Shown here: piece by piece, positions 2,752 through 42,173 of the stretch
Numbering within the stretch: the stretch's first letter is position 1
How the letters are laid out: every line of letters starts with the position of its first letter
Notes under the pieces: model-generated
What the model was told of the DNA's origin: nothing
Seen by the model: the letters and a program-made list of their open reading frames with translations, nothing else
The model's database searches: none
Made by a program: the position numbers and the translations under genes
Assembly: GCA_036924285.1 (NCBI GenBank)
Contig: JAYKYS010000018.1
Location: forward strand, 2,914,001 to 2,978,000
Direction of reading: 5' to 3'
Source: Asterella californica
Lineage: Eukaryota > Streptophyta > Marchantiopsida > Marchantiales > Aytoniaceae
DNA length: 64,000 nucleotides

Positions 2752-2778
2752 ACCAGACATAGCACAGATGTAGAAAAC

Positions 2779-4587
2779 ATGAGCACATTACACCCATACC
2801 TACATCGTTCACCACCGCAGTCTCCACCACCGCACTCAAGTGACTTTGAGATGGCATCGTCTCCTCCCACTGAGATCCAAGCACCACCACCACTCCGGCG
2901 ATCAACACGACAGTCCAACCCTCCTAACCGCGATCCAGCTGAAGGTTACTACACAACGACTTTGATCCCGAAGGCACGAACGAGTAAGAAGCGTGCACTA
3001 ATGGTGACCTTGAGACCAGTCCCGATGGAGCCCAACTCCTATCAGGAGGCCTTATCATCTCCAGATGCTGCTCGATGGTCCGAGGCCATCACCGAAGAGC
3101 TCAAGTCCCACGAGGAGAACGGTACATGGACACTCACAGATTTACCACATGGACGAAGGCCCATAACCAACAAGTGGACCTTCAAGCTGAAGCTGAATTC
3201 AGATGGGTCCATCGCCCGATACAAGACACGGTTGGTGGCCCGAGGATTTACTCAAGTGTATGGGCTCGACTACACTGACACCTTCTCCCCTGTGGTCCGT
3301 GTGCAATCAGTGCGATTGATACTAGCAATTGCAGCTCAACACAACCTCCACGTCCACCAGATGGATGTGAAGACAGCATTTCTGAATGGAACGCTGAGTG
3401 AAGAAATCTACATGGCAGTCCCTGACGGCATCAACGCCCGAGGAACTGGTAAAGTGTGCAGGCTACTTCGTACACTTTATGGATTGAAGCAATCTTCTAG
3501 AGAATGGTATTTGATCATAGATAAGTTCTTACTTTCTCTCGGGTTCAGTAAGTCAGGAGCTGATGGTAACGTATATTACATTCACAAGGATAATCAGTTT
3601 GCCATCCTAGCACTCTATGTTGATGATACAATCATAGCAAGCAGCAGCGAAGGATTGCTAACATACATCAAGAGTAACCTCAGCGCAAGGTTCCAGATGA
3701 GTGACATCGGTAACATCCATCATTGCTTGAGTATAGAGATTAACCGAAATCGAGCAGAAGGATGGATCAGACTCAGTCAAACCTTGTACCTGACCCAAAA
3801 GTTATTCCAGTTTGGCTTAGAGAATTGTCAACCTGTCAGCACACCATTGACCCCAGGAGAAAAGTTCTCAACTGAAGATTGTCCTGCTACCACTGAAGAG
3901 AAGGCGCAATGTGCTTCTTATCCATATCAGAGTGCGACAGGCTCCATCAACTGGGCTGCCGTCTGCACTCGTCCTGATCTAGCCTTTAGCATTAGTGTAT
4001 TATCTCAATACATGGCTAACCCAGGACTAAAACACATCACCGCCATAAAGCGCACATTTCGCTATATCAAAGGTACTCTAGACCAGTACTTAGAATACAA
4101 GTACTTGCCTCAACCAATTTCTCTATTTGGCTACACTGATGCTGACTGGGGAGGTCACATCGAATCACGACGTTCAACATCTGGAAATTGCTTCATCTAT
4201 TCACAAGGAGCAATCAGTTGGTCGTCAAAGAGACAGAAATCTGTTGCACTATCAAGTACTGAAGCTGAGTATATGGCACTCAGCACATGTTCATCAGAAG
4301 CAATGTGGCTTCGACAACTCTTAGCGGATATTGGTTTAGCTGAGAATGAGGCAACTACTTTGTATTGTGATAACCAGAGTGCAATAGCACTCATAGAATC
4401 GTCCAAGTTTCACGACAGGACGAAACACATAGATATTCGGTACCACTTCATTAAGGATCAAGTTGCATCCAAGACAATTGAAGTGAAGTATTGCCCTACT
4501 CAGGAGATGGTAGCGGATATCCTAACTAAGGGCCTACCGGCTCCCAAGTTGGATTATCTTCTACCAAGACTAGGATTGAAAGTTTAG
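2779..4587 (+). CDS. Copia polyprotein, second part: reverse transcriptase and RNase H
   Basis: This is in the same frame as the preceding block; the interval 2752-2778 has no further stop. Reverse transcriptase motifs are visible: the KWTFKLK/RLVARGFTQ block, the QMDVKTAFLNG catalytic Asp, LYGLKQ and the YVDD active site. RNase H follows with YTDADWG, STEAEYMAL, CDNQSA and the HIDIRYHFI/DILTKGL end typical of copia. Length and motif set match a full RT-RNase H half. The protein acts in virus-like particles to copy element RNA into DNA. Expression needs the upstream frame unless it is initiated internally at 2779. Confidence 0.92.
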   Translation: MSTLHPYLHRSPPQSPPPHSSDFEMASSPPTEIQAPPPLRRSTRQSNPPNRDPAEGYYTTTLIPKARTSKKRALMVTLRPVPMEPNSYQEALSSPDAARWSEAITEELKSHEENGTWTLTDLPHGRRPITNKWTFKLKLNSDGSIARYKTRLVARGFTQVYGLDYTDTFSPVVRVQSVRLILAIAAQHNLHVHQMDVKTAFLNGTLSEEIYMAVPDGINARGTGKVCRLLRTLYGLKQSSREWYLIIDKFLLSLGFSKSGADGNVYYIHKDNQFAILALYVDDTIIASSSEGLLTYIKSNLSARFQMSDIGNIHHCLSIEINRNRAEGWIRLSQTLYLTQKLFQFGLENCQPVSTPLTPGEKFSTEDCPATTEEKAQCASYPYQSATGSINWAAVCTRPDLAFSISVLSQYMANPGLKHITAIKRTFRYIKGTLDQYLEYKYLPQPISLFGYTDADWGGHIESRRSTSGNCFIYSQGAISWSSKRQKSVALSSTEAEYMALSTCSSEAMWLRQLLADIGLAENEATTLYCDNQSAIALIESSKFHDRTKHIDIRYHFIKDQVASKTIEVKYCPTQEMVADILTKGLPAPKLDYLLPRLGLKV

Positions 4588-8884: not shown

Positions 8885-9468
8885 AGGTTCTCTAAATTGT
8901 CATCGTCCTCTTCAACGTCTTCAACGTCTTCGTTAGGTAGCAGATCTGCATCAGCATCCATCATCTGATCTAACTCTAGAAATTCGGTTAGCTCAACAAA
9001 TTCTCCTCTTCTACTGAACAGCTTGATACGCTTGTCGACAACAAGAAGCCTTAGAGGTGTATCATCAAGCTCCTGCAGAGAATAAGTAGCAGGAGTGCTT
9101 GTTCTCTAGCGTACTGTCATACACCAATATCCAATCTCCAACATGTATGGATTTCGGTCGGTGCTATAGGTCTTGTCAAACATGTCTTTATTCTTGAGAC
9201 GAGCCTCTTTCAACTTCTGTTGTGTCTCTATAAGATCCCCCTCTCTATGTTCTAGCTGCTTGATTCAAAGTGCAAGAAGTTGTACACGATCCATTCCGTC
9301 TTCCCACGTTAGGGTAGCCCATGTAGGAAAGTCCTCCTCTGCCAGCATAATCGACTTTTGGCTCAGCATCAGTTCAATGGGCATGTACCCAGTAGTAGTA
9401 CAATGAGTCGTCATGTCAGCCCACAGAGCAAAGAGGAGCAACCTAGGCCACTGTCTATGTCTACCATC
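8885..9468 (-). pseudogene. Element II integrase, distal part and C-terminal tail
   Basis: On the minus strand this continues the integrase interrupted at 19698. WPRLLLFALW, HCTTTGYMP and FPTWATLTWEDG match the same words in element VI (29250-29420). The tail ends in an acidic stretch (EDVEDVEEDDD) as in element VI. Frameshifts and stops are present. The first bases (9465-9468, CATC) are the target duplication made when the DNMT element inserted. Confidence 0.75.
9465..9468. repeat. Target-site duplication CATC of the DNMT element (left)
   Basis: CATC precedes the inserted DNA here and follows it at 19698-19701. Joining the flanks at one copy restores the element II integrase sequence as seen in element VI. 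Confidence 0.8.
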
Positions 9469-9574
9469 TGTCGTGCGCATACACATCGCTACACAACATA
9501 CATCGCTGTCAGAGGTACACCACACATACACATAACACATGGACGATGTCATACACATACACAAGTGTACCACA
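9469..9574 (-). repeat. Detached first 106 bp of the DNMT-element LTR
   Basis: It matches 10182-10287 over its whole length with essentially one change near the end (taCcaca against taTcaca). It abuts host sequence on the left and the antisense RT fragment on the right. The 5' LTR at 19400-19697 lacks exactly this part. Confidence 0.9.
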
Positions 9575-9575
9575 C

Positions 9576-9881
9576 GGATGTGTTTGAGCGGTTGAGAGCT
9601 CATGGGTTGAAGTTACACCCTGGGAAGTGTAAGTTCTTCCAGGAGTTGGTAGAGTATCTGGGCCACACCATCTATCCAGGTGGATTGGGTGTTCAACAGA
9701 CGAAGGTTGAGGCTATTGCACGTATTCCGCGCCCCACAGATGTGAGTCGAGTTCGAGCATTTGTTGGTTTGGCGAACTTCTATCGTCGATACGTGAAAGA
9801 GTTTAGTGCAATTGCGAAGCCGTTGACCAAGCTGATGAAGGTGGACCAGGAGTGGCAGTGGGGAGATGAGCAGGAGCGAGC
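9576..9881 (+). pseudogene. Antisense fragment of the element's own reverse transcriptase
   Basis: It encodes, on the plus strand, the FERLRAHGLKLHPGKC to DEQERA part of the RT. It is the reverse complement of about 12545-12845 of the same element with about four transitions. Both ends are joined almost directly to LTR termini: LTR end ..CCACA plus one base on the left, one base then TGATAATC on the right. It is therefore a captured fragment inside the insertion, not a separate gene. Confidence 0.88.
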
Positions 9882-9882
9882 C

Positions 9883-10287
9883 TGATAATCTGAATACAGA
9901 GATTACCATCTCCAACACCACAACAAGGATTACTCACAAACGGTCAAGCCAAACCCACTCTAAACGCGAAGAGAATCCGGATTACACTCAACTAGACTAT
10001 CCACCATAGCCTGGAGCTTGAAGGCTCAACTCAAAGAACTAAGGCCTCCAAGCCCTACCTGCGAAGTTTACCCCTAGTGGGCTCTCTCTCCAACTCGCCC
10101 TAACGGCACTAACGGCCTTACCGGGATGCGCCACTTCGCACTCGGTCAACCTAGCCGAGGTGCCCAAACTGACGTGAGAGCTGTCGTGCGCATACACATC
10201 GCTACACAACATACATCGCTGTCAGAGGTACACCACACATACACATAACACATGGACGATGTCATACACATACACAAGTGTATCACA
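9883..10287 (-). repeat. Complete 3' LTR of the DNMT element (405 bp)
   Basis: On the minus strand it starts TGTGATAC directly after the polypurine tract and ends ATTATCA. Positions 9883-10177 match 19400-19694; positions 10182-10287 match 9469-9574. Confidence 0.88.
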
Positions 10288-10301
10288 ATCGCCCCCCTAA
10301 C
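10288..10301 (-). other. Polypurine tract of the DNMT element
   Basis: The minus strand reads GTTAGGGGGGCGAT immediately before the LTR. This fixes the LTR boundary. Confidence 0.85.
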
Positions 10302-10460
10302 TGGCGGTTAGGTCCCTCTAACTCCAGATAGCTCCATATCCCAACTACGTGATACACACCTTCATGGGTGCAAGGATCAGGAGGCCGGGTGCTACATTGC
10401 CCCATCGTTAGTCGCCTGTCTGCAATCCATACCACGCAAAGATCTAATCGACTATCTCCG

Positions 10461-13400
10461 CTATATACATCGAGGACAAACCCACCGTCCAGTAGGAACT
10501 ACACTGAGAGGTGGAGTCAAACATGACATGTGCCAACCTCTCGAACAACCATCACACACCAACATACGGGCTGCTCCACCAGCAGACCCACACAACATAC
10601 ACCTCAAGCCCGCACGTACAACTGCTAAGCTTGGGTCAACGGTACCATCAATGTTGCGAAGATGACATGGCGCGCAATTACGCACATGGTCCTTCCACAC
10701 AACACCATCACGGCCCTCTAACATGAGTACTCCAGAAGGTAACACCTCACGCACTCGTAAAATAGTGCGCCCTGCGGTCACGTCCAACGTCGTCGGTGCA
10801 GTCTGCTGTAGATAGATATAATCGCCAGGATGAAACCTGCGAATCGACGGCCGATAACCTCCTCCTCGGATAGTCGCATACCGCAACGTGTCTCTATGCT
10901 GGGCAATCGCTAGGTTCTCAAAAGCCATAGGCATAACTCTCCGAAATGTCTCTGCTCGTTGAGAACATGCTCTCACCCACATATCCGGGTCATCAAGGTC
11001 CAGCACCTCAGCAGAATCACGACGAATGGCCGAAGGTAGATCTGGATCTCGGCCATAAAATAAGAAATATGGTGAGAAGGAAGCCAAAGACGCTTGTCGG
11101 TTAAAACGGTAGCCCATAGCCAACCATGGTAACTGCACATCCCAGTCTCCCAAGTGGCCCTTTTGCAAGCCATACTTGCGCAATCCTCTCTTCACCGTCT
11201 GAACTACCCTCTCCGCCAAACCATCCGCCTCAGGATGATCTCGAGATGTAGTCCGATGATCAATCAGCGCCTGATCACACAAGGCCTGAAACTCACCAAG
11301 GAACTCTGTACCTTGGTCTGTCAGCACTTCAGCTGGTGCTCCGAAACGACTCAGCACTCGATCTAAGAAAGCGTACGCCGTCCCTTCACTCGCCTTGTCT
11401 GGTAATGCCACCAACTCAATCCACTTGGAGAAGTGCTCCACCATCACCAACACATACCGGTGGTGACGTACGGTCAACGATAAGGGTCCCGCAAAATCCA
11501 AACTCCAACGATAACCCAACCCCATAATCGGTAAGGGGTGTAACTGTGGAGTAGGAGCATTAAACGATGCTCGTACTCGATCACAAACCACACATCGTGC
11601 GACAAACTGTTGCACATCGATGTGCATACCACGCCACCAATACTGTCCTTGGAGTAAGCTATGCGTACGCTTCACTCCAAAATGTCCCAACTCCTCATGG
11701 GCATGTCGTACTAACTGTGCCCTCTGGGATGGATGTGGCACTATCCGTACCCTTCCATCACCCCACACTCGAAGTACATGTCGTCCTTCTCGTCGAAATC
11801 TCTTCGCTCGTTGAAGGACACGATCTCGCTCCTTGGCACTTACTGTGCCTACTACCACATCAGTACGTAGATACTCCATCACGGTCACATCATCATGGAT
11901 ATCTCGCTGGTCTGGAACACCATCTCCACCCTCAGGATCTGGAGACTCATCATCTACTCTCTGACCAGAGAAAGATACGACTTGGCCCTCCATACTAGAG
12001 TTCATGGCCAACACACAAAGAAAGGCAGATGCATGCCACCCTGGCACTATCTCCTCATCAACCTCGTCATGCCATCGAGCCCCAGTCTGATCCTGCTGAC
12101 TCGTGCACGGGTTGCGACTCAACCCATCGGCATCTAGGTTTGCAACTCCAGGTCTATGTACTACCTGGAAGTCATACTCCTGTAAGATCAGAGCCCATCG
12201 TGCAAGCTTCCCTGTAAGCTTATCGGATTCCATCAACCACTTAAGCGGCTGATGATCAGTGATGAGAGTAAAGAGGTTCCCAAACAGATAACATCGAAAG
12301 TGTGCAACATCCCACACTGCCGTCAAACACTCTCCCTCATACGAACTATACCTCGCCTCCGCTGAATTATTGGAGCGACTGGCATATGTCACCACGAACT
12401 CCTTTTTCTCATCATCATGTTGAGTCAGCACTGCTCCAAGTCCCAACATACTCCAATCTGTGTGCAGTTGGAAAGGACGCCCCCTAACGGGTCTCCTCAA
12501 GATGGGAGCAGATGTCAACCTATCCTTGAGCTCTACAAAAGCTCGCTCCTGCTCATCTCTCCACTGCCACTCCTGGTCCACCTTCATCAGCTTGGTCAAC
12601 GGCTTCGCAATTGCACTAAACCCTTTCACGTATCGACGATAGAAGTTCGCCAAACCAACAAATGCTCGAACTCGACTCACATCTGTGGGGCGCGAAATAC
12701 GTGTAATAGCCTCAACCTTCGTCTGTTGAACACCCAATCCACCTGGATAGATGGTGTGGCCCAGATACTCTACCAACTCCTGGAAGAACTTACACTTCCC
12801 AGGGTGTAACTTCAACCCATGAGCTCTCAACCGCTCAAACACATCCCGTAAGTGTCTCTTGTGCTCCTCCACTGTAGCACTATAGACTAAGATGTCGTCA
12901 ATATAACATCTGACAAAATCCAATCCTGCTAAGATTCTGTCAATCACCCTTTGGAACTCAGCAGGGGCATTCTTCAACCCAAATGGTAAGAACCGCCACT
13001 GATACAAACAATCCTTGCCGTGAGAGTCAATTCCCCAGAATGCTGTCTTGGACTTATCTTCTTCTCTCACTGGCAACTGATGATACCCTGCTCGAAGATC
13101 CAAAGTACTGAAGACCTTCACATGCCCCACTGCATCAAAGATCTCCTCAGGTGTCGGCATGGCATACTTATCGGACTTCGTCTGCCGATTGATAGGACGA
13201 TAGTCCCCACACATCCGTCTATCTGTGTAGTTGCCATACATATCCTTCTTGGCTGGCATAACTGTGGCAGATGCATACTCTCCATGCGACATCTCCACCA
13301 ACCCAGCCTCCAACAAGTCTTGAGTCCGACTCTGGATCAAGGCTCTCTCCATGTCACTATACCTGTAAGGACGTCGAAAGATTGGCGTGTCATTAGCCAA

Positions 13401-13556
13401 GTCGATCCGTATGCCAGGTCCTTTCAAGGTACCCAAATCCTTCATACTGAAGGCAAAACAATTCCTGTAGCTCTTCAGGAATCTTTGGACTCTTCGTCTC
13501 TCCTCTCCTATAAGCTTGGGTCCAATCTTTGGCTCCCAAGTATCCTCTGTCACCAT
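10461..13556 (-). CDS. Gypsy Pol: RT, RNase H, integrase and C-terminal PHD finger
   Basis: The frame is open from the UAG at 13587-13589 to 10461. From M at 13556, residues 50-250 are reverse transcriptase with FSTLDLRAGYHQ, LPFGLKNAP and YIDD at 218-221. RNase H follows with HTDWS, YEGECL, ITDHQPL and DGLSRN. Integrase has the HHCC zinc site (HEELGHFG..CVVCDR) and catalytic D, D, E in LDFAGP, TDQGTEF and GLAERV. The last 50 or so residues form a C4HC3 PHD finger: CMLCGS, VCDGC, GWHMSC, WVCPRC. PHD fingers usually bind histone H3 tails, so a role in choosing integration sites is plausible but is inference. All catalytic residues are present and no internal stop was seen. Confidence 0.93.
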   Translation of the reverse strand: MVTEDTWEPKIGPKLIGEERRRVQRFLKSYRNCFAFSMKDLGTLKGPGIRIDLANDTPIFRRPYRYSDMERALIQSRTQDLLEAGLVEMSHGEYASATVMPAKKDMYGNYTDRRMCGDYRPINRQTKSDKYAMPTPEEIFDAVGHVKVFSTLDLRAGYHQLPVREEDKSKTAFWGIDSHGKDCLYQWRFLPFGLKNAPAEFQRVIDRILAGLDFVRCYIDDILVYSATVEEHKRHLRDVFERLRAHGLKLHPGKCKFFQELVEYLGHTIYPGGLGVQQTKVEAITRISRPTDVSRVRAFVGLANFYRRYVKGFSAIAKPLTKLMKVDQEWQWRDEQERAFVELKDRLTSAPILRRPVRGRPFQLHTDWSMLGLGAVLTQHDDEKKEFVVTYASRSNNSAEARYSSYEGECLTAVWDVAHFRCYLFGNLFTLITDHQPLKWLMESDKLTGKLARWALILQEYDFQVVHRPGVANLDADGLSRNPCTSQQDQTGARWHDEVDEEIVPGWHASAFLCVLAMNSSMEGQVVSFSGQRVDDESPDPEGGDGVPDQRDIHDDVTVMEYLRTDVVVGTVSAKERDRVLQRAKRFRREGRHVLRVWGDGRVRIVPHPSQRAQLVRHAHEELGHFGVKRTHSLLQGQYWWRGMHIDVQQFVARCVVCDRVRASFNAPTPQLHPLPIMGLGYRWSLDFAGPLSLTVRHHRYVLVMVEHFSKWIELVALPDKASEGTAYAFLDRVLSRFGAPAEVLTDQGTEFLGEFQALCDQALIDHRTTSRDHPEADGLAERVVQTVKRGLRKYGLQKGHLGDWDVQLPWLAMGYRFNRQASLASFSPYFLFYGRDPDLPSAIRRDSAEVLDLDDPDMWVRACSQRAETFRRVMPMAFENLAIAQHRDTLRYATIRGGGYRPSIRRFHPGDYIYLQQTAPTTLDVTAGRTILRVREVLPSGVLMLEGRDGVVWKDHVRNCAPCHLRNIDGTVDPSLAVVRAGLRCMLCGSAGGAARMLVCDGCSRGWHMSCLTPPLSVVPTGRWVCPRCI

Positions 13557-13586
13557 GCTAGAGATAGAAGACGAAGTCGTTGACTG

Positions 13587-15605
13587 CTATCTTGCAGCCT
13601 CTGGAGCAGTTTTCTTCTGCTCACCACCAACAACCTCCACCGCTACTGTGCGTAAAACTTCTGCAGTTCTAGCTGCAAGCTCCACACTCTCTCCTATGAC
13701 ATCCCATGATGTCCAAGGATGACGAACTCCACTTGCCTCACCCCCAGCCTTTGCCTCCACCGACCCGGTAGGCAAAGAGCTCAAGAGTGCTCGAGCAGTA
13801 ACACCCGTCGATCGCATCCGACGCTGCTCAGCCAATCCAAGGCTAACAATCCATGTCAAGCAATTCAAGTCCATTGCTTGACCCAATACTTGACGACGTG
13901 AAGCCTCCGACACCGAAGCTACTGCCGTCGTACCCGTAGTGAAACCCATCGCTCGCTCTCTCTCATCGGCATTGGGCTCCATCAACTGCCGTAATTGAGC
14001 ATCCCACACAAGCCCAGGTCCTCCATCTCTGTAAGCATGTGACGCTGGAAAGCTTACCAATGTGGGTAATGCTACCATGGGCCGTCCCACTAGGTTCACC
14101 ACTGCCATGGATGACCTATCGACGACTCTCACTACTTGAGATCGTCGTCCTGCATCCAAGATGCTATCAACCGTGAGGTGCGCTGGTCGTCTCACTCCAT
14201 CGTGTGCGCGCTTAAGCACCTCTCTCGGTAACAAGTTCGTCCACCACAACCATGGACGATGTGCACGAGATCCCACTCTCGCTGCATCCAACAACACTGC
14301 TGGTCCAACCCAAGACCGCACTTGGTGCACACTCGCCATCATCTGTGTACGAGCATCACCCAACAAAGGAACGTTCTCCAAGATGTACGTTGGAGAATCC
14401 ACCTGATGCATCTGGAGATGTCGTAGGATCCGTAACATCTCCCAGAACATCCTAGATCGCGGGTCATGTAAACCCTGACCTCTCCCTGCACGCGTGTGAC
14501 CTTGACATGGCCATCCGGCTATCACCAAGTGAATGGTGCCCACAAACGTGAGATCCTGCGCCCCCAGCAGCGAAATATCCGACCGTAATGCTTGCTGGTA
14601 TCCTCTAACAGCTGATATGGGCAACAACTCAGGATATCTCTGCACCAAACGTGCCACATGTCGCAATGAGATGCGTCTCGCAATCTCATCTCTCTCCACA
14701 TACAAGTATCGCTGTACTTGTATACCTGCCTGCAATACCGCAGCCAAACCTGTGCTGATCCCTCCAAACAGCTCCAGCACACATACACCTTCCTCTGGAT
14801 ACTGCCACACAATGGGAGTCGTATCCAATGGTGATAAGGTCACAGGGCCAGTAGCAGGAACAACCCTTTGTTCCTCTACTGGTGGTACAAAAGCTTCACT
14901 CCAAGCCTGCTGCACCAACTGATCAGCATACTGCTGCAACTCTCCACTTGAACTCCAGAGTGGAATATCCAAGGCAGATGGTACTAACGTAGACATGCTA
15001 GGCATGTCCTCCACCTCCTCATAGATCGGAGTATCCTCCGCATGGGCATTGCCCTCCAACAACTCGCCCGGCCAAGTGATGACCGAACTGAACCCTGCAA
15101 CGGATGCCATCGTCCCTGGTGTAGGCTCCGTCGTCCCAACTCTAGCACTGAACCGCACTGGTAAGCGGCTCACTCGTCCCTCACCGGACTGCCAACCTGG
15201 TCTGTAAGATGCTGTCTCCGCCCAATAGTCGATCACGAACCCCATAGGGTACAACACAGCACCTCCCACCAATACATCATAAGACTCTGCGACTGTAACG
15301 ATGGCCTTGGCCCTCACCATAGAGCCATCCGTGGGGTGATCTGGCCGAACTCTCACCGTCAACATCTCACGTGTCATGTGTAGAGCCGTACCTCCTGATC
15401 CCCCTAGAGATGTCTGCAACTGGAATGGACATCTCTCTATCTCGGACTTCTTCAGACCCAAACCAATACACGCTGCCTTTCCCAACATCAACGGTTGGGC
15501 TCCAGAGTCTAACAAGACCTTCTGGGGTCGATACACTTTCCCTGAAGGTGCCACCAAACAGAAGATATCACTTCTGTTGTCCAACAACACCACACCTGGT
15601 GCCAA
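13587..15605 (-). CDS. Protease fused to a cytosine-5 DNA methyltransferase
   Basis: The aspartic protease comes first: DSGAQ at residues 33-37 and the VLVGG block near 112. From about residue 274 the protein is a C5 DNA methyltransferase: motif I LELFGGISTG (277-286), motif II VERD (303-306), motif IV WPCQGH with catalytic Cys367, motif VI ENVPLL (410-415), motif VIII SRAHRPW (446-452), motif IX RERAMGF (549-555) and motif X GQAMDLN (575-581). The end pattern (ERAMGF ... SRRQVLGQ) resembles DNMT3 more than bacterial enzymes. The target-recognition region is short (about 456-545) and there is no extra reader domain in this part. It would methylate cytosine in DNA, possibly the element's own cDNA. 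The frame is open from the UGA at 15666-15668 and ends at a UAG with a readthrough-type context, in frame with Pol. Confidence 0.92.
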   Translation of the reverse strand: MAPGVVLLDNRSDIFCLVAPSGKVYRPQKVLLDSGAQPLMLGKAACIGLGLKKSEIERCPFQLQTSLGGSGGTALHMTREMLTVRVRPDHPTDGSMVRAKAIVTVAESYDVLVGGAVLYPMGFVIDYWAETASYRPGWQSGEGRVSRLPVRFSARVGTTEPTPGTMASVAGFSSVITWPGELLEGNAHAEDTPIYEEVEDMPSMSTLVPSALDIPLWSSSGELQQYADQLVQQAWSEAFVPPVEEQRVVPATGPVTLSPLDTTPIVWQYPEEGVCVLELFGGISTGLAAVLQAGIQVQRYLYVERDEIARRISLRHVARLVQRYPELLPISAVRGYQQALRSDISLLGAQDLTFVGTIHLVIAGWPCQGHTRAGRGQGLHDPRSRMFWEMLRILRHLQMHQVDSPTYILENVPLLGDARTQMMASVHQVRSWVGPAVLLDAARVGSRAHRPWLWWTNLLPREVLKRAHDGVRRPAHLTVDSILDAGRRSQVVRVVDRSSMAVVNLVGRPMVALPTLVSFPASHAYRDGGPGLVWDAQLRQLMEPNADERERAMGFTTGTTAVASVSEASRRQVLGQAMDLNCLTWIVSLGLAEQRRMRSTGVTARALLSSLPTGSVEAKAGGEASGVRHPWTSWDVIGESVELAARTAEVLRTVAVEVVGGEQKKTAPEAAR

Positions 15606-15665
15606 ACTAGCACGGTCAATCGCCGGCCTAGCTGGTAACTCATCTAACCTAGCAGCCGCCGCTTG

Positions 15666-16004
15666 TCAAGTACCACTGGTAGCTGTCCTGATCCTCGACT
15701 CCATGGACACGTCTACCGCCTCTCGCTGAACTACTTCAGCACTAGAGGTAACTACATCCTCACTCTCACTGAGCGTGGCCGCCATCTGGAACACTGGAGC
15801 CAAGTTGACTCCCAATGCCCTCATATCCGTGGCTGAGAATAGTGGGGCTCGCAAAACTGCTGTAGCTGCCCCCAACATCGGGTTCGACGTCGCATCCACA
15901 GACGTCGAAGGTGGACTCACATCACACCCACTCCTGGATGTCGATGCCTCCAACTCTACTGCACCATCGGTAGGTCGTTTAGGAACCATAGATGTGGTCC
16001 TCAA
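15666..16004 (-). CDS. Linker block between gag and protease of the DNMT element
   Basis: An in-frame block of about 120 residues lies between the UAG at 16026-16028 and the UGA at 15666-15668. It is Ser/Thr/Ala-rich with no domain I recognise. Its frame is shared with gag and protease, so it is probably part of the same polyprotein, at the gag C-terminus or a processing spacer. Confidence 0.6.
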   Translation of the reverse strand: MRTTSMVPKRPTDGAVELEASTSRSGCDVSPPSTSVDATSNPMLGAATAVLRAPLFSATDMRALGVNLAPVFQMAATLSESEDVVTSSAEVVQREAVDVSMESRIRTATSGT

Positions 16005-16025
16005 CGCCTCCGATAACGTGAACGA

Positions 16026-17111
16026 CTAGGGAAGCCTGGCTTGTCTACCAGCCTCCCCGCGTTGTGGATCCAACTCCACTGACGCACCTCGTGGCTCAGA
16101 GGCACGTACTGCACCTCTAGTCACTGCCGCAGATGTCTCAATCTGCGCCACACCAGCCATGAAGTCGAAGTCACCTCCTTCTCCTCCATAAGACGTGGAA
16201 GCCTCTGTTCCACCTGATCTCCGCTGAGCCATAGCCATACTAGCTATCCTCTGCTCCAACTGCTCAATCCGAGCAGCCATACCTGCTTCTGACGTCGTAG
16301 CAGGCGGTGGACCGACCGGTCCTCTCCCAGGTGCTGGACCTCTACCTCCAGCTCGACCACCACGGCCTCCCTGAGCTCCTCCGCCTCGTCCACGATCAGC
16401 CTTCCCTTGCCGCAACTCGGGATGGAGATCAAAACAACGGTCACTACTGTGACCAGGTCGTCCGCAATGCTCACATTGCCTGGGTACTGCTTGAGACGTC
16501 CCTGATGTCCCTGACGTCTCATAACCTCTCCTCTGTGGACAGTCCCTCTGCTGATGAGGACCATCACACGTCCAGCAAGGACCCGCTTGCTGCTGACTAG
16601 AGAAGGACGGCATGGGCTTCTGCCCACCAGATCCTCCAACACCTCCCTGAGATCGTGACTGCTCCGCACGATCCTTACCACCACCACCACCACGCTGTTG
16701 CGTAGCCTGTGATCCTCGAGAAGAGGTGGTCGCTCCATGTGGTGTCTCCTTGCTGAACCTAGCAACCACCACCCTCTCCTCCACCATGTTGAGCTCAATC
16801 CGCTCAGCCAGACTAAAGACAACCGCCAACGTCGGAGCGGTATCTCTAAGAAGAGTAGCATCTCTAACTCTCCTACGCAGCTCCCGGTCTAGTATCCCAT
16901 ACCAGAACTGGACTGCCTGTGCTTCCGTCACCCCTTGGGTAACGCTGATCAACCGCCTCATGCGAGTAAACGCCTCGCGTAGGCTCTCTCCAGTCTTCCG
17001 CTGGAACTCCTGCAGACTCCTCAACTTGTCGGTCCGCACACCCTGATAGTTCTTCCTCAAACATTGGAAGAACTGAACCACAGGGTTAAACCCTGGTGGT
17101 ATCTCGCTCAC
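16026..17111 (-). CDS. Gag of the DNMT element: capsid and two zinc knuckles
   Basis: The frame is open from the UAG at 17244-17246; the first codon given here is a GTG, so it is unlikely to be a real start. The capsid-like part (FFQCLRKNYQGVR ... LREAFTRMRRLI ... FWYGIL) matches the retrotransposon gag fold pattern. Two nucleocapsid zinc knuckles follow: CWTCDGPHQQRDC, with a three-residue C-to-H gap, and a canonical CEHCGRPGHSSDRC. An RG-rich basic tail then likely binds RNA. The block ends at UAG 16026-16028. Confidence 0.88.
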   Translation of the reverse strand: MSEIPPGFNPVVQFFQCLRKNYQGVRTDKLRSLQEFQRKTGESLREAFTRMRRLISVTQGVTEAQAVQFWYGILDRELRRRVRDATLLRDTAPTLAVVFSLAERIELNMVEERVVVARFSKETPHGATTSSRGSQATQQRGGGGGKDRAEQSRSQGGVGGSGGQKPMPSFSSQQQAGPCWTCDGPHQQRDCPQRRGYETSGTSGTSQAVPRQCEHCGRPGHSSDRCFDLHPELRQGKADRGRGGGAQGGRGGRAGGRGPAPGRGPVGPPPATTSEAGMAARIEQLEQRIASMAMAQRRSGGTEASTSYGGEGGDFDFMAGVAQIETSAAVTRGAVRASEPRGASVELDPQRGEAGRQARLP

Positions 17112-17243
17112 ACTACCACCTGCTCCACTACTTGTGGATGCACCGGTAGTAGGTACTCCGCCACTTGTGGCTGCACCACTGCTACTGGCACCCGAACTCG
17201 CAGGTGCTACGCCTCCCGAAACTGCGCCAGTAGTGATAGAAAC

Positions 17244-17681
17244 CTAGTTGGGAGACCAATGTTGTCTCCACAACTCGATCTCAACACTGTAATCTCGCCT
17301 GAACTCATGATAATCGTCCATCGGCGGTCCCACCAAGTGCTGGAACAAACCCTTCCACGCCATGAAGGGTGTAAACAGCTGTGGGTTCCGCATCTGCTGC
17401 AGATCGCACCAACTGTCAAACTCCTGGATGAAGTCATCCAGCTCAATGGTACCAACTGTACCCGAGTAACGTCGAGGCCCCTTCGTGGCCCCATAGATCT
17501 CGTCCATGTCCCACAACAACGGTGTGGTGACACTAGACTCACCACCAGAAAACACGCTGTCTGCGTCTGACTCGTCCTCTGGAACAACCGACGGCAATGG
17601 TGTAGGTAGTCGGTACCTCACCCCACTCCGTGTATATCCACTGTTCGAGAAGTCTCCACCAGAACCTCCCGAGAACTCCAT
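17244..17681 (-). CDS. N-terminal gag block of the DNMT element
   Basis: It starts with ATG at 17681 and is in the same frame as the next gag block. It is acidic and Ser/Gly-rich at first, then helical-looking (DDFIQEFDSWCDLQQM, PFMAWKGLFQHL), consistent with a gag N-terminal domain. It ends at UAG 17244-17246, which would be Gln if a C to T change were undone. This is the most likely translation start of the whole polyprotein. Confidence 0.75.
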   Translation of the reverse strand: MEFSGGSGGDFSNSGYTRSGVRYRLPTPLPSVVPEDESDADSVFSGGESSVTTPLLWDMDEIYGATKGPRRYSGTVGTIELDDFIQEFDSWCDLQQMRNPQLFTPFMAWKGLFQHLVGPPMDDYHEFRRDYSVEIELWRQHWSPN

Positions 17682-19399
17682 GATGAGAGAATCCCGCTAA
17701 CACACTCCCCAACCGGAATGTCGCAATCTCCGTCACCACCGTAACCACCACTTGCCTAATCCCGCTCCTACTGAGCTCACCTATCCCCTACTAGGACGGT
17801 CAAGGTAAGGGCAACCTGTACCTGTCATCACCACAAGCAGCCTCTCACGGTCTGTTGGTCGTCACTCCAACCGCACCGTGAGAGAGACAAAGGTAGTCTG
17901 ACTGGTCCGCAACTCCAGCCTCACTACCGACAGCACACTGGAGTGAACTCACTCCGAAAATCAAGCGCCAACACAAGCAAACGCGGCGTACAAACAGGAA
18001 GCAGAGTATGGAGGGGTTCCAACCACAAGAAGTCCAAACGATAACCCTCCACACTCAAACATTCACATAAAGAGAAACCCAGCCCCACCCGGACTGACGA
18101 CTCCTTGTCGGTGACCACATGCACAATATATGGTCACCAACAGTCGTAACTGACACTGGAGGTCACTAACTAGATGTCCACACCTCTAGTAGCTCCAAAA
18201 ACATCCACGTGATAGCTCTACTAGCTCACCCAAGACAATTGCCACCAATTGCCTCCATACGCGCCTCTACGGTGTAGGCAAACACTACCACAACTATAGC
18301 TTCCCCCTAATACTGTGGGGTCGCCTTACCACTCCTCTAGGGACGTGCGAGAAGGTCTCCTACTACCTTATACAAGTCCATAAGTACTTGCACGTATCCC
18401 TGTAGGACACCAAGAGCTATTGGTCTAGTGGTAAAGCCAAAGCTAAGACTACAGAGTCAGGAGTCCAGGTCCAGGAATAGTGTTGGGATGGGTGACCAGC
18501 TGGTTTTACCCTTCCCACACACCTGAAAGTTGGATACCTCTCTCACGCACGTCAGCAAGCTGGCTTGCGGCGGGCACGAGCTCAAGCTCAGGCTCAGCTC
18601 CGCTCCGCCTCCGCACTCACGCACCTCTGCTCCTCGAAGCCTCTAAACGCCTCCTAACACGCACTCCACATCTCGACACTCCCGCTCAGCTCCGCTTGAA
18701 GTAGAGTAGAACAGGTACACACACCAGAAGAGGCTCGAATTGCAGAAGATTGCACCAAAACAGTCTCCAAAACAGCGAAAACAGCTTGCGGGTGCACACG
18801 GGTGACCAAAATTTGACGTAAAACAGCAAGAACCTCCAAATCCAACTCGAACACCACCAAAACAGATTCGCAAATGCACCACACACACTTCGCGGATGCA
18901 CACACACACACAAAACAACTACTAAACTCGAGTTTCCACACGAAATTGAGCCAAAATCTGACGTAACTACCCTTTTGCACTTGCGGGTGTCAGAGCAGCG
19001 AACTTCGACATGCCATAACTTCTTCAATCCTTGGCCAAACTCCACGAAACTTGGTGCGCTACAATCGTCTCTCCAATGCGCTTCCAAAGAGTCCACTCCG
19101 GCCCGACATTGACAAGTATTTCAGCTGCTACGCCCAAACGCGCAATCCGGCTCCAACAACACACTTCAAGAACATTCCGCAAAATTTCTGCAGCGCTTCC
19201 GCATGACAGAAATCTCCACTCGACCCCAACAACAGCAAATCGATCTGCGACCAGCAATGTAGCACGGCGCCCACACACCTCGATCACAGCTCCAAACAAT
19301 CAACCACGAACGGCAACGCCCGAAGATACCAGCGGACGATTTCCGATTTCAGATCTGCGAGCTCTTACTGAACTCCTCCTCGACCTGCACTTAGTTCTT
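17682..19399 (-). other. Long untranslated leader of the DNMT element
   Basis: About 1.7 kb lies between the 5' LTR and the gag ATG, with no long open frame in sense. It contains the pol III-like motif segment at 18415-18515 on the plus strand. I could not find a canonical TGG-starting primer-binding site directly after the LTR (minus strand reads AAGAACTAAGTGCAGG). Confidence 0.6.
18415..18515 (+). other. Possible pol III-type (tRNA/5S-like) SINE head, antisense in the leader
   Basis: TGGTCTAGTGG at 18421-18431 fits the tRNA A-box consensus. About 40 bases later GGTCCAGGAAT partly resembles a B-box. GGGATGGGTGACC at 18485-18497 matches the 3' internal part of 5S rRNA genes. No full tRNA or 5S can be folded, so a SINE fragment or chance similarity are both possible. 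Confidence 0.3.
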
Positions 19400-19697
19400 T
19401 GAGTAATCTGAATACAGAGATTACCATCTCCAACACCACAACAAGGATTACTCACAAACGGTCAAGCCAAACCCACTCTAAACGCGAAGAGAATCCGGGT
19501 TACACTCAACTAGACTATCCACCATAGCCTGGAGCTTGAAGGCTCAACTCAAAGAACTAAGGCCTCCAAGCCCTACCTGCGAAGTTTACCCCTAGTGGGC
19601 TCTCTCTCCAACTCGCTCTAACGGCACTAACGGCCTTACCGGGATGCGCCACTTCGCACTCGGTCAACCTAGCCGAGGTGCCCAAACTGACGTGACA
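19400..19697 (-). repeat. 5' LTR of the DNMT element, lacking its first 106 bp
   Basis: It matches 9883-10177 with about two substitutions and a one-base indel, then two bases (CA), then the host duplication CATC. The absent part is found at the opposite end of the insertion (9469-9574). Confidence 0.88.
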
Positions 19698-20246
19698 CAT
19701 CGCATGTCTTTACTAGGGCTTGAACAATCGGTAGATGCCCTCTCTCGCTCTTACCAATCCTTTCTAGATTCATGACAGTAGTGAGTTTGAGTTTCGCTCC
19801 GTGTTGGACAAAGAACTCCTTCATTTCCATACCACGCAACTCTTCTTTGTCTGCATGCAATCTCCCTATAGATCCATATCTGCAGATAATATCCTCAAGA
19901 ACAAACCTACATATCCTCTCTGTGGTCTTCGTTCTCAGAGCTCGTCCTTCCACAAAGTTGGAGAGGTCTTCTCGAGCCAACACAAGTACCTCATATCCCA
20001 TAACCCGAGAGACATCACCACCAAATCGAGAACCCATCGGAAGTGTATGCAAGGCGGATAAGTAGACACAAGACCATCCCTGTATCGCGTCTTTGAGTAA
20101 AACTGATAATGTAAGCAAGAACTGACGTAGATCATCACATCTTGATATAGACATTTTCACCAATATCTTTTCTTCAACTTGACGTAAGTAGCCCAAATCC
20201 CTCGATGTCCAGTCCATAAGATATAATGAAACTCCTTCATTAGTTG
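19698..20246 (-). pseudogene. Element II integrase, proximal part
   Basis: The minus-strand frame contains YEVLVLAREDLSNFVEGRAL, ERICRFVLEDIICRYG and SERGHLPIVQALVKTCD, all matched in element VI at 28940-29240. It stops at the insertion point of the DNMT element and resumes at 9468. The first part (20085-20246) is frameshifted. Confidence 0.75.
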
Positions 20247-21023
20247 CTATTTAGTCTGCAGGTCGTCCACTACTCGTATGAACATCCCATCTCTCATCTG
20301 AGGTCGTCTCCAAAGATATCCATCGCGTAGAAGGTAGTTGTATGCTTGTTTTCTTATCTCTCTGAACTCTACTTTACTCCACCTCTCTCGCCTCTCCAAT
20401 GAACTCAGATAATATCTTATGTCACGAAGACTACCTGTGTAAAACTCTTCTCTAAACATCAACGGCTCCAAGTTTGTAACTTGTCGACCAATTTGACACC
20501 GAACATCCTTTCTTTCTTCTTCCTTAGCTTCTGAAAACATATCCTCCTCGTCTATATACCGAGCCCTTGACAACATATATGCTATCACATTCTCCTTATC
20601 TTTTATATGCTTCAGCTCTGGATTCAAGCTCCTAATGTATGCAATCCAACGCAACATCGCTATGTCCGACGTGCTACATTTCGATATCCTCCCAAACAGA
20701 GATAGACAATCTGTCTCTAAGACTACATGAGCACCAATCAAGAACTCACGATCTGTCTTCATCGTGGTGATCACACCTCACAACTTACGCTTCACTTGAG
20801 GATAATCTTGTTGCCTGTCCGTCAAGATTCTAGCCTCAAATCTTGAGATAAATCGTACACTACTCATATCATCTTGACCTATCGCCCAGCCAATCGCCTT
20901 TGGGCTAATATCCGCCTTGACAATGATAGGTCTTCCACACCCGTAGTCTATTCTTTTCAACACAGGTGGAGACTTCATAGTCCCCTTCAACCTATTCAAG
21001 CTTCTTGATGGACTGAAATCCAT
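20247..21023 (-). pseudogene. Element II RNase H and integrase zinc-region remnants
   Basis: VKADISPKAIGWAIGQDD begins RNase H. LETDCLSLFGRI, AMLRWIAYIR and the region after ARYIDEEDMF continue into the spacer before integrase. A frame change at 20774-20778 breaks it. EEFYTGSLRDI and VEFREIRKQAYNYLLRDGYL match element VI at 28487-28620. Confidence 0.7.
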
Positions 21024-21731
21024 ACAAACCTCTTACTCTTCCTCAGTAATGCATAAAAAGGCTCTGCAACGTGAGCATAATGAGAAATGGATAGACGGTA
21101 AAATACACAAGCTCCTAGAAAACATCGAACCTCTGTGATATTTTTGCAGTCTGTCATCCTAGCTATAGCGTCAACCGTCTCCGGATTTGGTCGTCTTCCA
21201 AAAGCACCACACAGATGATCAACCACTAAAATCTCATACACACAAACTTAGACTTTGCTCTTGACAAGATGAGATGTATCTCCTCCAGACGAGTCAAAAT
21301 ACGCTCTACATCTCTGATATGATTTGCAACAAACCTCTTACATCCATCCGCAAGTACTGCTTCATCCTTGTCCTCAACCGCGCAACCTTTTATAAGAATA
21401 TCATCTAGAAATGGAATAGTAGCTTCAGGTACAAACTCTCGTAATACTCTATGCATCGCGTTTTGCATATGATTCACCGAGTTTGTCGCTCCTTGAGGAA
21501 GAGTAGACATTCGCATAAACCCCAAAGGTGTATGCATAGTGATCATATCTCTACTTTTGACAGCCAACTGAAACTGATCATAACCATAATATAGATCTCC
21601 AATCGAATAGATAGCTCTCCTTGTAAATACCTCCGTTATCTCATCAATCACAGGACCCATCCCAACGTTACGAATGATCACGTTATTCACATGTTGTAGG
21701 TCCTGAATAAAACGCAAGGCTCCTAACTTCT
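21024..21731 (-). pseudogene. Element II reverse transcriptase
   Basis: LGALRFIQDLQHVNNV, SIGDLYYGYDQFQL, MSTLPQGATNSV and FLDDILIKG are the RT palm motifs with the catalytic LDD. The N-terminal RT part is missing: at 21732 the sequence switches to the LTR of element IV, and resumption on the other side (52812) falls upstream of the RT, so about 80 residues were lost or lie unrecognised. Confidence 0.75.
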
Positions 21732-24700
21732 TGTAGTGTCGCAAGATTACTCCTTTTGCCCATTTAGTATAAAAGATATCGTTCCCACAGAGGATTTGCA
21801 CAAGTAACACTGTTCTAAGTTCTAAGATTCGTTCAAACACACAAACACACGGGTTTTACCTAAAATTCCCGTCTTCTCACAAAACCACACGGCTTTCAGA
21901 CCCTTCAGAAGGTGCCCCGAACCTAAACAAACAACTACTAACTAAAATATCACACAACTATCTACAGAGAAGCTCGGGAAGACACTTCCTGCTTCCAAGT
22001 CACTTCTTTCGGTCTTCTCAGTACCGTCTTCCCGAAGCAATTCTCGGCTTTTGGGGTTCAACTCGGCTTCTCACAAGACTGCTTCTGCTTCATAGAAGTC
22101 GACTAGCAACACTTGTCGCACATTGCTCTTCCAATTCCCAACGGGTTAGATCAATCACATGGTGTATGCCCCCTGTAGCCTTCCCAAGCTTCTGCCTACG
22201 GAAACGGTCTTCCTGCAGCACTACAACGACATTCACCTTCACGGAAGCTCAATACAAGTCTCGGAAGCTCACTAGAAGAAGGTAAGAAGATGGGGAAGAT
22301 GGGAAAGAAGGGAAAATCCAAACGAGAGAAAAACAAGATGAAAATGAGAAATTAAGACTCCGACAGGCTTCTAGTCCGGATCCTGACTAACAAGCCATCC
22401 CTGCTTGTAATAGTTTGGGGAGGAAGATCACAAACATGCGTGTAGTTACACAGTCTTCTACTTGAGGATGTCGTCTTTTGCTCTGAGAAGAAGGCTTCTT
22501 TCTTCTTCTCTCGCTGCTCTGACTACTCTGTCTTCTGGGATTTCTTACCCATAGGACCGTCCGTACGTGGATCCGAAGTGCTCCACTGGATGAGCCAAGC
22601 TGCGAATCTGCACAACTGCTGACAATCACCGTCACTCAAGAAGAATGCTTTCCATGCACAATCGGGAGTGAATTCAAGGAACCCACTACCCCCAAGACAC
22701 AGACAAAGCTTCTGCACTTCAATCAGCAATCTATTCCTCAAGAAGAAGGCACATTGGTGTTGGGAAGTTCACTCCCTCTACTTTCTGCTCCTACTCCTCG
22801 ACACATCAGTTTAGCCAGCAAGACTACATGAGGATGTCGTTCCCTGCTCCTAAACTGCTCACTACCTCTATCTACATCTTCGAACCATTGCTGACAATGA
22901 GAGAATGCAGACCCCTTCGGTGTAATCCCAATCTATTCGTATGTCTCTAACATCGGGTGTAGTGTGCACTATGCGTATACATCTCTAGTGTAATGTTTCC
23001 TTATTCATAGTGATGCGTATGTGTGTTTGAAAATCTACTCTTCGGTCCTACTTATACATCTACCTTGAGGTGCAGAGGGAATCCCCTCCAATCCTCAACT
23101 ACAACCAGGGGGAGATGGGCGCTGTCAGAAGGCTGCCAACCCACATGCAAGCGGTTCCTCTTCTTGTTTAGCCATCCACCTTACTACTCCTGCGCTGCCT
23201 ACTCTGCCATATGGTCACCTATCTAATATTACACTGAAACTGCCACCTCCTAAGATAGCATGTTTGGTTCCTACTAAGTTTGGACAAGTCAACTTGTCTT
23301 CTACGCTTTGCTGCCAACTCTAATTGCTCGGATGCAATCTCCATTTGATCTGCTGCTACTTGAACTCCTAACTCAGCTTCTGATAAGCTGGGAAACCCTA
23401 CGAATACCTCGGATGTCATTGAGGTGACTTCCTCCTCAACATTCGTAGTTGGCTCGCCTGGTGCTGCTTCGGAAGACGGAAGCGTCTTCTGGGAAGTTGG
23501 GTCGACCTACGCTTCCTCGCTCTTCTGAGGTACTGGTTCGACGCTGGGGGCCATAGTGACCTCATAGGGGTCCGGGGAAGTCACCTCCTCCACTCGAAAC
23601 ACCTGAGAAGACAACTCTTCTTCATATCTTCTAGAAGACACCTTGTCTTCCGGGGCTTCTTCCGTGGTCTTCTCGGCTTCCAACGCTATCACTACTAAGT
23701 GGACAGCGAGGTCGAACTCCTCCTTCTCCAAGTCTGATCCGATCGATGGTCCTGGGGCTTGGGAAGATGCAGTCGCAAGTGACGGAATCGAGAGAAGACC
23801 GTAAAGTGTCTTCACTCTCTCTATCTACCGATCCAAGTAACGGAACATGCTCTCCTTGCACTCCACTAACCTTGCTCTGGACTCGTCGTCCCACTCCCTA
23901 GCTAAGGTAAGAAGCTTCTTACCCGCGGTGAAGTTGAACTTCTTCCGAAGCGCTTCCACCGTCTGAGCTAGCAACCCCTACGCACGAGCTTCTGCTGCTT
24001 CTCGCTGCGTCTTCTCGGCTGCAATCTGCACTTCTGCGGCTTCCCGTAGTGTCTTATATAAAGTCTTCTCCTCTGCGAGGGTGGAGAGTGGTGATCTTAC
24101 CTCTGACCCGCAGAACCTCCTGGTCACGCTGCTGTAAACGCGCCTGCAACTCCTGGTTGCTCTTCCTCAGCTGTGCTAACTCCTTGACAGAAGCGGCTGC
24201 TTCTGTCTTGTACTTCGCTGCAAGCTTCTCCGTGGTGCGGAGGTTGACTTCCAGCGCTTCTACCTTCTTCTGGCCTTCTTCCTGCCGCCTCAAGGTGCAC
24301 AGATCGAATCCATGCTGTAGTGGCTTCTCCTGAACCATCGGTCTCTTCTCCACCAACTCCATAGTTGGCTGGATCTCCAAGTGGAAGAAGGCACTGAACT
24401 CCTCCAATCTTCTTCCCGTGGAAGACAGACTCATCCCCACGATCCGGACGGAGGTGTCTTCCTTGTCTTCCAGAGGCAAGGATGCCTCTTCTGCTGCTGT
24501 GACCTTCTGCTTCTGTGCGCGAGAAGAAGCTACTCTTCTCATCTTCCGGGGTGGAAGATCTCTCTCCATGGCGGAAGCGGTCCTCTTTACTGCGCTTTCT
24601 CGCATCGTAGTAGGAGTATCCATCCAACCTTCGTCTTCTGGAGTCTTTGAAAGACTCCCTAGTGTTGCAGAAGCGGTCTTCTTCGCAGCTCGGGTACTCA

Positions 24701-37061: not shown

Positions 37062-37075
37062 TTTTACCCCCGGAC
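37062..37075 (-). other. Polypurine tract of element V
   Basis: The minus strand reads GTCCGGGGGTAAAA directly before the LTR. Confidence 0.88.
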
Positions 37076-37951
37076 TAAATTTTCGCTCCGTCCTCGGAGT
37101 GAAGAGAGAACTTTCGTCGATGAAACAACTTCAACTTGTCATGATTTACTCGATCAAATCTCCTTCCTCCCAGCTCCTGAAGGTCATATGTGAAGTTGTT
37201 CCACACCTTATCTACAACAAAAGGACCAAAATATCTTGGAAGAAACTTCTTCCTAGCCCTCTTGAATCTGATAGCATCATACAACATAACCCAATCTCCG
37301 ACTTGAAAAGGTTTTACCTCCCTCTTGCCCAACCGTTTGTCGTAACTCTTCTTTTGATACGCCTGAGCTCGTTCCATCCGGATCATTGCTACCGCTCGGG
37401 TCTCTTCCAACTCCATGAGTTGCTCCCTTCTTGATCTGACCACGTCTTCTCCTCTCGACCTCTTCAACTTTCGTTGAATAGTTTGAAAAGTATCCAATTC
37501 GAATTGGATCGGCAACTTGGACTCCACTCCATAAACCAGTCGAAATGGGAAGTATCCAGTAGAAGTCTTTGTTGTCGTTCGGTACTCCCATAAGATGACA
37601 TGTAGCCTCTTATCCCAAGTATGTTTCGCAATTTCAACACCAGCGTCTTTGACGAGCATCATACAAAGTGTAAGATTGGTCTTCTCCGCAAGACCATTAG
37701 CATTTGGTTTGTATGAGGTCGTTACTCGTGGCTTGATAGAAAAGTGTTGTAGCATAGCAGTAGTCACGCTCCCTACAAACTCTCCTCCTCTATCTGAGAC
37801 CAAATCTAACGGACATCCAAATCTCGTGATGATCCTCTCCCATAAGAATCTACCGACTTCTGTTTCATTGGTCTCTCTCAAAGGTCTAGCCTCTACCCAC
37901 TTGGTACAATAGTCAGTGGCGACTACAATGTATCTATTGCCTCGAGGTGTC
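37075..37951 (-). CDS. Element V integrase, catalytic core and tail
   Basis: The frame is open from about 37951. The first codon at 37881 is TTG, so this is not an independent start but the continuation of Pol after a one-base shift in an A-run near 37953-37956. Core motifs: TDYCTKWVEA, VSDRGGEF with the second Asp and NGLAEKTN with the Glu. The tail has VGDWVMLYD and the KFLPRYFGPFVV segment typical of gypsy integrase C-termini. The element integrates cDNA into the genome. The frame break suggests a defective copy. Confidence 0.88.
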
Positions 37952-41961: not shown

Positions 41962-42173
41962 CTTGTAACTACTCTTCTACACTTCCAATTTTCGTGCAAT
42001 AACTACTCGCTAAAAGAGCACGAACATCACCAATTCCATTCGCGAATAATCTACCATAGGTAAAATAAAAGGAAACGGTTGTAACAACACCTCTTGTGCC
42101 ATCTCTTCTCCCAAGGTAATCATGAGCCTGAGTCGCATCACCGCCTTCTCCACCATCCGAATGACGATCTCCA

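What the first reader, a model, noticed from the sequence alone, without database searches (positions are those of the whole stretch)
13587..15605. Retrotransposon-borne DNA methyltransferase with all key motifs
A gypsy polyprotein carries a C5 methyltransferase between protease and RT. Motifs I (LELFGGISTG), IV (WPCQGH), VI (ENVPLL), VIII, IX (RERAMGF) and X (GQAMDLN) are all visible, so the enzyme may be active. DNMT capture by retrotransposons has been published for charophytes and dinoflagellates (de Mendoza and colleagues, 2018); the exact architecture here (protease-DNMT-RT with a PHD tail) may be new. A mobile element that methylates its own DNA could change how the host silences or tolerates it.
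Basis: partly seen in the sequence, partly recalled or inferred. Interest (0 to 1): 0.9.

Follow-up and report, generated by a model that had tools for sequence, protein, structure and literature searches.

The report
Jumping gene carrying a DNA methylase
A recently active jumping gene of an alga or plant carries its own DNA-methylating enzyme, apparently made together with its coat protein in front of a leaky stop signal; a similar element is known from one green alga, and the copy in this window is itself damaged.

Summary
The methylase is real. It lies in a 10,229-bp Ty3/Gypsy element (9469-19697, minus strand) with TG...CA ends and a GATG target duplication. It is DNMT3-like by sequence (DNMT3A, E 4.9e-9) and fold. 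The family is young and multi-copy: 16 of 123 scored rows keep a 1,367-1,381-codon frame, and seven repeat pairs differ by 0-3 of 398 nt. The DNMT evolved under purifying selection (dN/dS 0.23).

(b) The repeats are DIRS-like (A1-coding-B1-A2-B2) although the integrase is DDE-type. (c) This copy is broken: Trp replaces a motif VIII Arg kept in 31 of 32 rows, and three more stops interrupt it.

Nearest known: KnitGypsy-Dnmt3 of Klebsormidium, with the same three hallmarks. Self-methylation is inference; the DNMT's ancestor is unresolved. New variant of a known kind.

The parts
9469..19697 (-). whole element, 10,229 bp, TG...CA ends
   Evidence: ends and 4-bp duplication fixed against an uninterrupted relative of the target at 28832-29604
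19698..19701 (.). target-site duplication GATG, 5' side of the element
9465..9468 (.). target-site duplication GATG, 3' side of the element
19404..19697 (-). terminal repeat A1
10182..10287 (-). repeat B1, directly behind a purine-rich tract (TTAGGGGGGCGA)
9883..10179 (-). repeat A2, joined to B1 by a 2-nt spacer
9576..9881 (+). x: 306-nt antisense copy of the element's own RT (12541-12846), at the A2|B2 boundary; only in the window copy among the loci sampled
   Evidence: 98.7% identity; no match in 13 of 13 other A2-side loci
9469..9574 (-). terminal repeat B2
16026..17696 (-). gag part of the frame, with a stop at 17244-17246 in this copy; weak Retrotrans_gag and zf-CCHC matches (E 0.018 and 0.062, below Pfam's cut-offs)
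15171..15626 (-). protease-like stretch with a DSGA motif; not confirmed
   Evidence: motif by eye; searches give no support
13830..14804 (-). DNMT3-like C5 DNA methylase domain; Trp in place of a motif VIII Arg in this copy
13581..13589 (-). in-frame TAG CAG TCA between DNMT and RT, readthrough-type context UAG CAR YYA
   Evidence: motif: passages of PMC2754532
12750..13226 (-). reverse transcriptase (RVT_1)
   Evidence: E 3.1e-32
12174..12479 (-). RNase H (RT_RNaseH)
   Evidence: E 1.7e-32
11232..11732 (-). integrase: H2C2 zinc-binding domain and rve core
   Evidence: E 1.1e-16 and 7.1e-14
10467..10601 (-). PHD finger at the C-terminus
   Evidence: PF00628 E 6.8e-11; solved PHD fingers E 7.6e-15 and weaker

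Best explanation
This is one decayed copy of a recently active Ty3/Gypsy family in a streptophyte. Shown: one reading frame divided by a family-wide UAG into gag-(protease?)-DNMT and RT-RNase H-integrase-PHD, split DIRS-like repeats, 4-bp target duplications, and purifying selection on the DNMT. Inferred: most ribosomes stop at the UAG and make a Gag-DNMT protein, and a minority read through and add RT, integrase and PHD. The methylase is then made in Gag-like amounts and carried in the particle, where it can methylate the element's cDNA or new insertion with DNMT3-type chemistry. The PHD finger steers integration to a histone mark, as chromodomains do for other Gypsy elements. The outer ends are restored during reverse transcription by copying the internal B1-A2 joint, as proposed for DIRS elements. 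The DNMT of the window copy itself is probably inactive.
For: DNMT3 type. Family copies. UAG in 31 of 31 readable rows, CAGTCA in 31 of 32; 16 of 123 scored rows have a 1,367-1,381-codon frame, the length expected for gag-DNMT up to the UAG; the hexamer fits CAR YYA (passages of PMC2754532). Selection: DNMT dN/dS 0.229 against 0.179 at the start of the RT frame and 1.36 in the spacer before the UAG; shared variants N:S 0.71, singletons 2.02. Repeat order: 13 of 13 A2-side and 7 of 7 A1-side loci; 4-bp duplications match in 6 of 7 pairs. Youth. Damage of this copy.
Against: Readthrough was not measured. The nine bases TAGCAGTCA are not exceptionally conserved: 59 of 483 in-frame windows vary as little, and the RNA behind them is not unusually folded (z -0.91). 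One of 7 repeat pairs has no matching duplication (the two ends lie 19.4 kb apart and may not belong together). The mutation spectrum points to CG and CHG decay alike (0.33 and 0.33 per site in singletons, CHH 0.17), as host silencing would leave, not to CG-specific self-methylation. Element CpG observed/expected (0.74) is not below that of the window (0.69). The K. nitens DNMT gave no activity in yeast, which its authors call inconclusive.
Confidence: 0.6

Rival explanations
1. The DNMT is kept for a non-DNA or non-catalytic role, such as methylating or binding the genomic RNA in the particle.
For: No trace of CG-specific self-methylation. The K. nitens and SymbioLINE DNMTs showed no DNA methylation in yeast, called inconclusive by the authors.
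Against: Motif IV Cys and motif VI ENV are kept in 31 of 31 rows that cover them (one row, L215, differs beside the Cys), and the fold is that of DNA methylases.
Confidence: 0.2
2. The UAG is no readthrough site: RT-IN-PHD is made by reinitiation, splicing or another route.
For: No flanking RNA structure; moderate conservation only.
Against: Both frames are in phase on either side of a single codon, and the CAR YYA context stands behind it in 31 of 32 rows.
Confidence: 0.2
3. The DNMT restrains the element or serves the host, lowering copy damage, instead of helping retrotransposition directly.
For: Raised as a possibility by de Mendoza et al.; copies decay in a plant-like methylation context.
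Against: Selection on the DNMT matches that on the RT start, and the family is young.
Confidence: 0.12
4. Assembly chimera, contamination, or a host methylase gene beside a retrotransposon.
For: Some prokaryote and phage proteins score higher (58 bits by phmmer; 78 bits by tblastn) than DNMT3A (38 bits; other query length and database).
Against: 27 of 30 opened DNMT loci are copies in the same arrangement on many contigs; the host DNMT3 is a separate gene with its catalytic domain in at least two exons.
Confidence: 0.01

Closest known systems
KnitGypsy-Dnmt3 of Klebsormidium nitens (de Mendoza et al. 2018, PMC5890265; abstract and parts 1-5 of 7 of the main text read)
   Same: Ty3/Gypsy domains, a DNMT3-type domain in the coding frame, repeats described as having the structure of a DIRS element, purifying selection on the DNMT (Ka/Ks < 0.2 there; 0.23 here).
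   Different: There the DNMT is described as part of the Pol polyprotein; here it ends a gag-DNMT frame at a UAG before RT. A PHD finger is not mentioned in the parts I read. Domain order there stands in a figure I could not see, so some differences may vanish.
SymbioDIRS-Dnmt3 and SymbioLINE-Dnmt of Symbiodinium (same paper)
   Same: Retrotransposons carrying a C5 DNA methylase under purifying selection.
   Different: DIRS (tyrosine recombinase) and LINE elements; here a Gypsy element with DDE integrase and 4-bp duplications.
DIRS retrotransposons
   Same: Split direct repeats A1-coding-B1-A2-B2.
   Different: Gypsy-type RT and rve integrase, TG...CA ends and target duplications; no tyrosine recombinase among the Pfam matches.
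Chromodomain-bearing Gypsy elements (chromoviruses; recalled, and titles in the listing)
   Same: Gypsy core with a chromatin-reader domain after the integrase.
   Different: A PHD finger in place of a chromodomain, and a DNMT in addition.
Type I (tobamovirus) stop readthrough UAG CAR YYA (passages of PMC2754532)
   Same: UAG followed by CAG UCA.
   Different: Found in a retrotransposon; readthrough not measured here.

Membership tests
Ty3/Gypsy LTR retrotransposon | RT, RNase H, then integrase (rve), in this order | tested here: met
   Pfam
Ty3/Gypsy LTR retrotransposon | TG...CA ends and 4-5 bp target duplication | tested here: met
   window and 6 of 7 other pairs
Ty3/Gypsy LTR retrotransposon | two complete, identical long terminal repeats at the ends | tested here: not met
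   A1 alone at the 5' end, B1-A2-B2 at the 3' end: 7 of 7 and 13 of 13 loci
DIRS retrotransposon | split direct repeats A1-coding-B1-A2-B2 | tested here: met
DIRS retrotransposon | tyrosine recombinase and no target duplication | tested here: not met
   rve integrase found, no tyrosine recombinase match; duplications present
KnitGypsy-Dnmt3 | Gypsy domains, DNMT3-type domain and DIRS-like repeats together | tested here: met
   the description of the family is
KnitGypsy-Dnmt3 | common descent of RT and DNMT with the K. nitens copies | not testable with these tools
DNMT3 methylases | closest to DNMT3 among characterised enzymes, motifs unpermuted | tested here: met
DNMT3 methylases | nested among eukaryotic DNMT3 in a tree | tested here: inconclusive
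   long branch between eukaryotic and prokaryote/phage proteins; none of 10 other placements rejected by AU
Active C5 methylase (this copy) | all catalytic motifs intact | tested here: not met
   motif VIII Arg replaced by Trp in the window copy only
Type I stop readthrough | UAG CAR YYA | tested here: met
   motif
Type I stop readthrough | readthrough product made in cells | not testable with these tools
   needs an experiment

The most novel reading that the evidence does not exclude
A class of Gypsy elements with a DDE integrase and DIRS-type split ends packs a DNMT3-like methylase in structural amounts, as part of its Gag protein ahead of a leaky stop, so that every particle can methylate its cDNA before integration, while a PHD finger on the readthrough arm aims integration: an epigenetic writer and reader in one mobile element.
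Probability: 0.35. Interest if true: 0.8.

Novelty: new variant of a known kind. Interest (0 to 1): 0.6.

Why it matters
It extends DNMT capture by retrotransposons to a young, multi-copy family in another streptophyte genome and makes dosage testable: the methylase seems to be made with Gag, not with RT. It also shows that the odd repeat order, noted once for KnitGypsy-Dnmt3, is constant in the 20 other repeat loci sampled and goes together with target duplications and a DDE integrase. That asks for a replication scheme that is neither textbook LTR nor textbook DIRS.

Tried and rejected
Chimera or contamination: rejected. Canonical LTRs: rejected by the repeat map. An active enzyme in this copy: unlikely. 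Descent from the host's own DNMT3: neither shown nor excluded. Retropepsin by profile, PDB sequence or model: nothing. RNA structure behind the UAG: nothing. Relatives in viral contigs with the window's DNMT or RT alone: none confirmed. A search for DNMT-less sister elements and exact pattern counts could not be made: the genome search was busy.

Opening a 2-LTR circle of a canonical BA-coding-BA product at the B|A joint would also give A-coding-B-A-B, but should give A-B-A-coding-B as often; 0 of 7 A1 loci look so. I prefer copying from the internal joint, as inference only.

Full report
WHAT IS THERE. ORF 13587-15665 (-) holds a C5 DNA methylase (PF00145, E 9.4e-9); the next frame (10461-13586) holds RT, RNase H, integrase and PHD. 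Among solved structures the best matches are DNMT3A (E 4.9e-9), then DNMT3B and 3C, then a plant DRM (6.5e-4); HaeIII, DNMT2 and HhaI are weaker. A model built with 36 prokaryote and viral relatives (mean pLDDT 69.6, pTM 0.77; residues 105-111 and 225-274 below 50) matches DNMT3 entries in all 50 rows shown, best E 5.4e-14, TM 0.55-0.62 by query length, rmsd 5.3-7.7.

ELEMENT BOUNDS. Self-comparison gives two repeat classes, A (about 294 nt) and B (106 nt), in the order A1-coding-B1-A2-x-B2 on the minus strand. The insertion interrupts the integrase of an older Gypsy element. A relative at 28832-29604 has the uninterrupted site, which fixes the duplication as GATG and the ends as TG...CA. x is a 306-nt antisense piece of the element's own RT (98.7%).

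THE FAMILY. The window lies in a genome of 516.7 Mb in 773 contigs. The host has permuted DRM genes, a CMT-like piece and a separate DNMT3 gene (names by my reading of the motifs). DRM was found restricted to streptophytes in PMC12344493 (passage), so the host is taken as a streptophyte; its name is unknown to me. A repeat-A search gave 1,958 first-look candidates, 40 scored, all 99-100%. Of 20 end stretches, 13 of 13 A2-side loci read B1-A2-B2 with no x, and 7 of 7 A1-side loci begin with A, with no B in front. 4-bp duplications match in 6 of 7 pairs; the seventh, 19.4 kb apart, does not match. In those six pairs and the window, A1/A2 plus B1/B2 differ by 0-3 of 398 nt; 11 of 11 changes are transitions.

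CODING PLAN. Five coding interiors are 93-98% identical to the window by stretch. Gag-DNMT and RT-IN-PHD lie in one frame, divided by one UAG. Over 33 rows (window, 27 of the 30 loci, five) the codon is TAG in 31 of 31 ungapped rows, and the next hexamer is CAGTCA in 31 of 32. Of 123 scored DNMT rows (1,250 first-look candidates; some rows are host genes) 16 have open frames of 1,367-1,381 codons. Of the six copies read through gag and pol (window and five), one has both frames free of other stops. UAG with CAR YYA behind it is reported as essential for tobamovirus readthrough; a plant reporter gave 32% for TMV (passages of PMC2754532). Against over-reading: 59 of 483 in-frame windows vary as little as these nine bases, and the RNA behind is not unusually folded (z -0.91). 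The window's other stops (17244, 16026, 15666) are absent from copies L195 and L197, so they are damage of this copy.

IS THE ENZYME KEPT? DNMT domain dN/dS 0.229 over 465 pairs of 31 rows (2 of 33 rows with large gaps dropped), 0.193 in the fifth with the highest dS (which then stopped on an error). Start of the RT frame 0.179 (435 pairs); spacer between DNMT and UAG 1.36. Variants shared by several copies are mostly synonymous in the DNMT (N:S 0.71), singletons are not (2.02); the RT start gives 0.53 and 2.08. This is expected if the DNMT worked while the family spread and copies decay after insertion. The method is pairwise and uncorrected for the tree, and decayed copies are included. Motif VIII: Trp in the window, Arg in the other 31 readable rows; that Arg is at least 90% conserved in the 37-row alignment. 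So this copy is probably dead while the family enzyme probably is not.

ORIGIN. In a 30-sequence tree the element sits on a branch of 2.39 between eukaryotic DNMT3/DRM (support 92.7/95) and prokaryote/phage relatives (85.7/89). None of 10 other placements, including sister to the host DNMT3 and sister to single prokaryote or phage proteins, is rejected by AU (p 0.19-0.48); one (with host DNMT3 and DNMT3A together) falls outside by bp-RELL and c-ELW only. Prokaryote and phage proteins score higher than DNMT3A, but plant and K. nitens DNMT3 sequences were not at hand. Capture from the host is not shown.

METHYLATION TRACES. C>T or G>A singletons per site: CG 0.33, CHG 0.33, CHH 0.17; shared variants 0.22, 0.24, 0.16. 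Host CG and CHG silencing would leave this; it gives no support for CG-only self-methylation.

LITERATURE. De Mendoza 2018 (abstract and parts 1-5 of 7 of the main text) reports KnitGypsy-Dnmt3 with a DNMT3-type domain in a Gypsy Pol, Ka/Ks < 0.2 and repeats 'the same as that of a DIRS retrotransposon'. Nine searches (open-licence PMC papers only, long lists capped) showed me no report of a Gypsy DNMT ahead of a readthrough-type stop or with a PHD finger. PMC12344493 (passages) says that DNMT3 members occur in LTR and DIRS elements of streptophytes and dinoflagellates. Seen in passages only: PMC11244446, PMC11540031, PMC6338049, PMC12477816, PMC9033089.

JUDGEMENT. Shown: element, bounds, domains (protease excepted), repeat order, conserved UAG, purifying selection, damage of this copy. 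Inferred: readthrough, particle packing, cDNA methylation, PHD targeting, end restoration from the B1-A2 joint.

Noticed in passing
9576-9881: A 306-nt antisense copy of the element's own RT sits exactly at the A2|B2 boundary, in the window copy only among 14 A2-side loci seen. It lies inside the target duplication, so it probably arose by a strand switch during reverse transcription, and hints that A|B is a strand-transfer point.
   Followed up: partly
8900-9464 and 19702-21855: Degenerate Gypsy element that served as insertion target; a 72-75% relative lies at 28832-29604 (+).
   Followed up: partly
1-4587: Copia-type element on the + strand with one stop between its two long frames.
   Followed up: no
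37075-41976: Second, unrelated Gypsy element (-) with gag, aspartic protease, RT, RNase H, integrase and an SH3_Tf2-1 match.
   Followed up: no
53783-54613: ORF (-) matching DUF4100, E 1.3e-7.
   Followed up: no
L199 (G000:C1:40145511): Host DNMT3-type gene with its catalytic motifs split over at least two exons, in unpermuted order; separate from the retrotransposon copies.
   Followed up: partly
L174, L175, L194 (G000:C21): This copy has no differences between its terminal repeats (0 of 398 nt) yet several stops in its coding part: defective copies may be moved in trans, or errors arise during copying.
   Followed up: no
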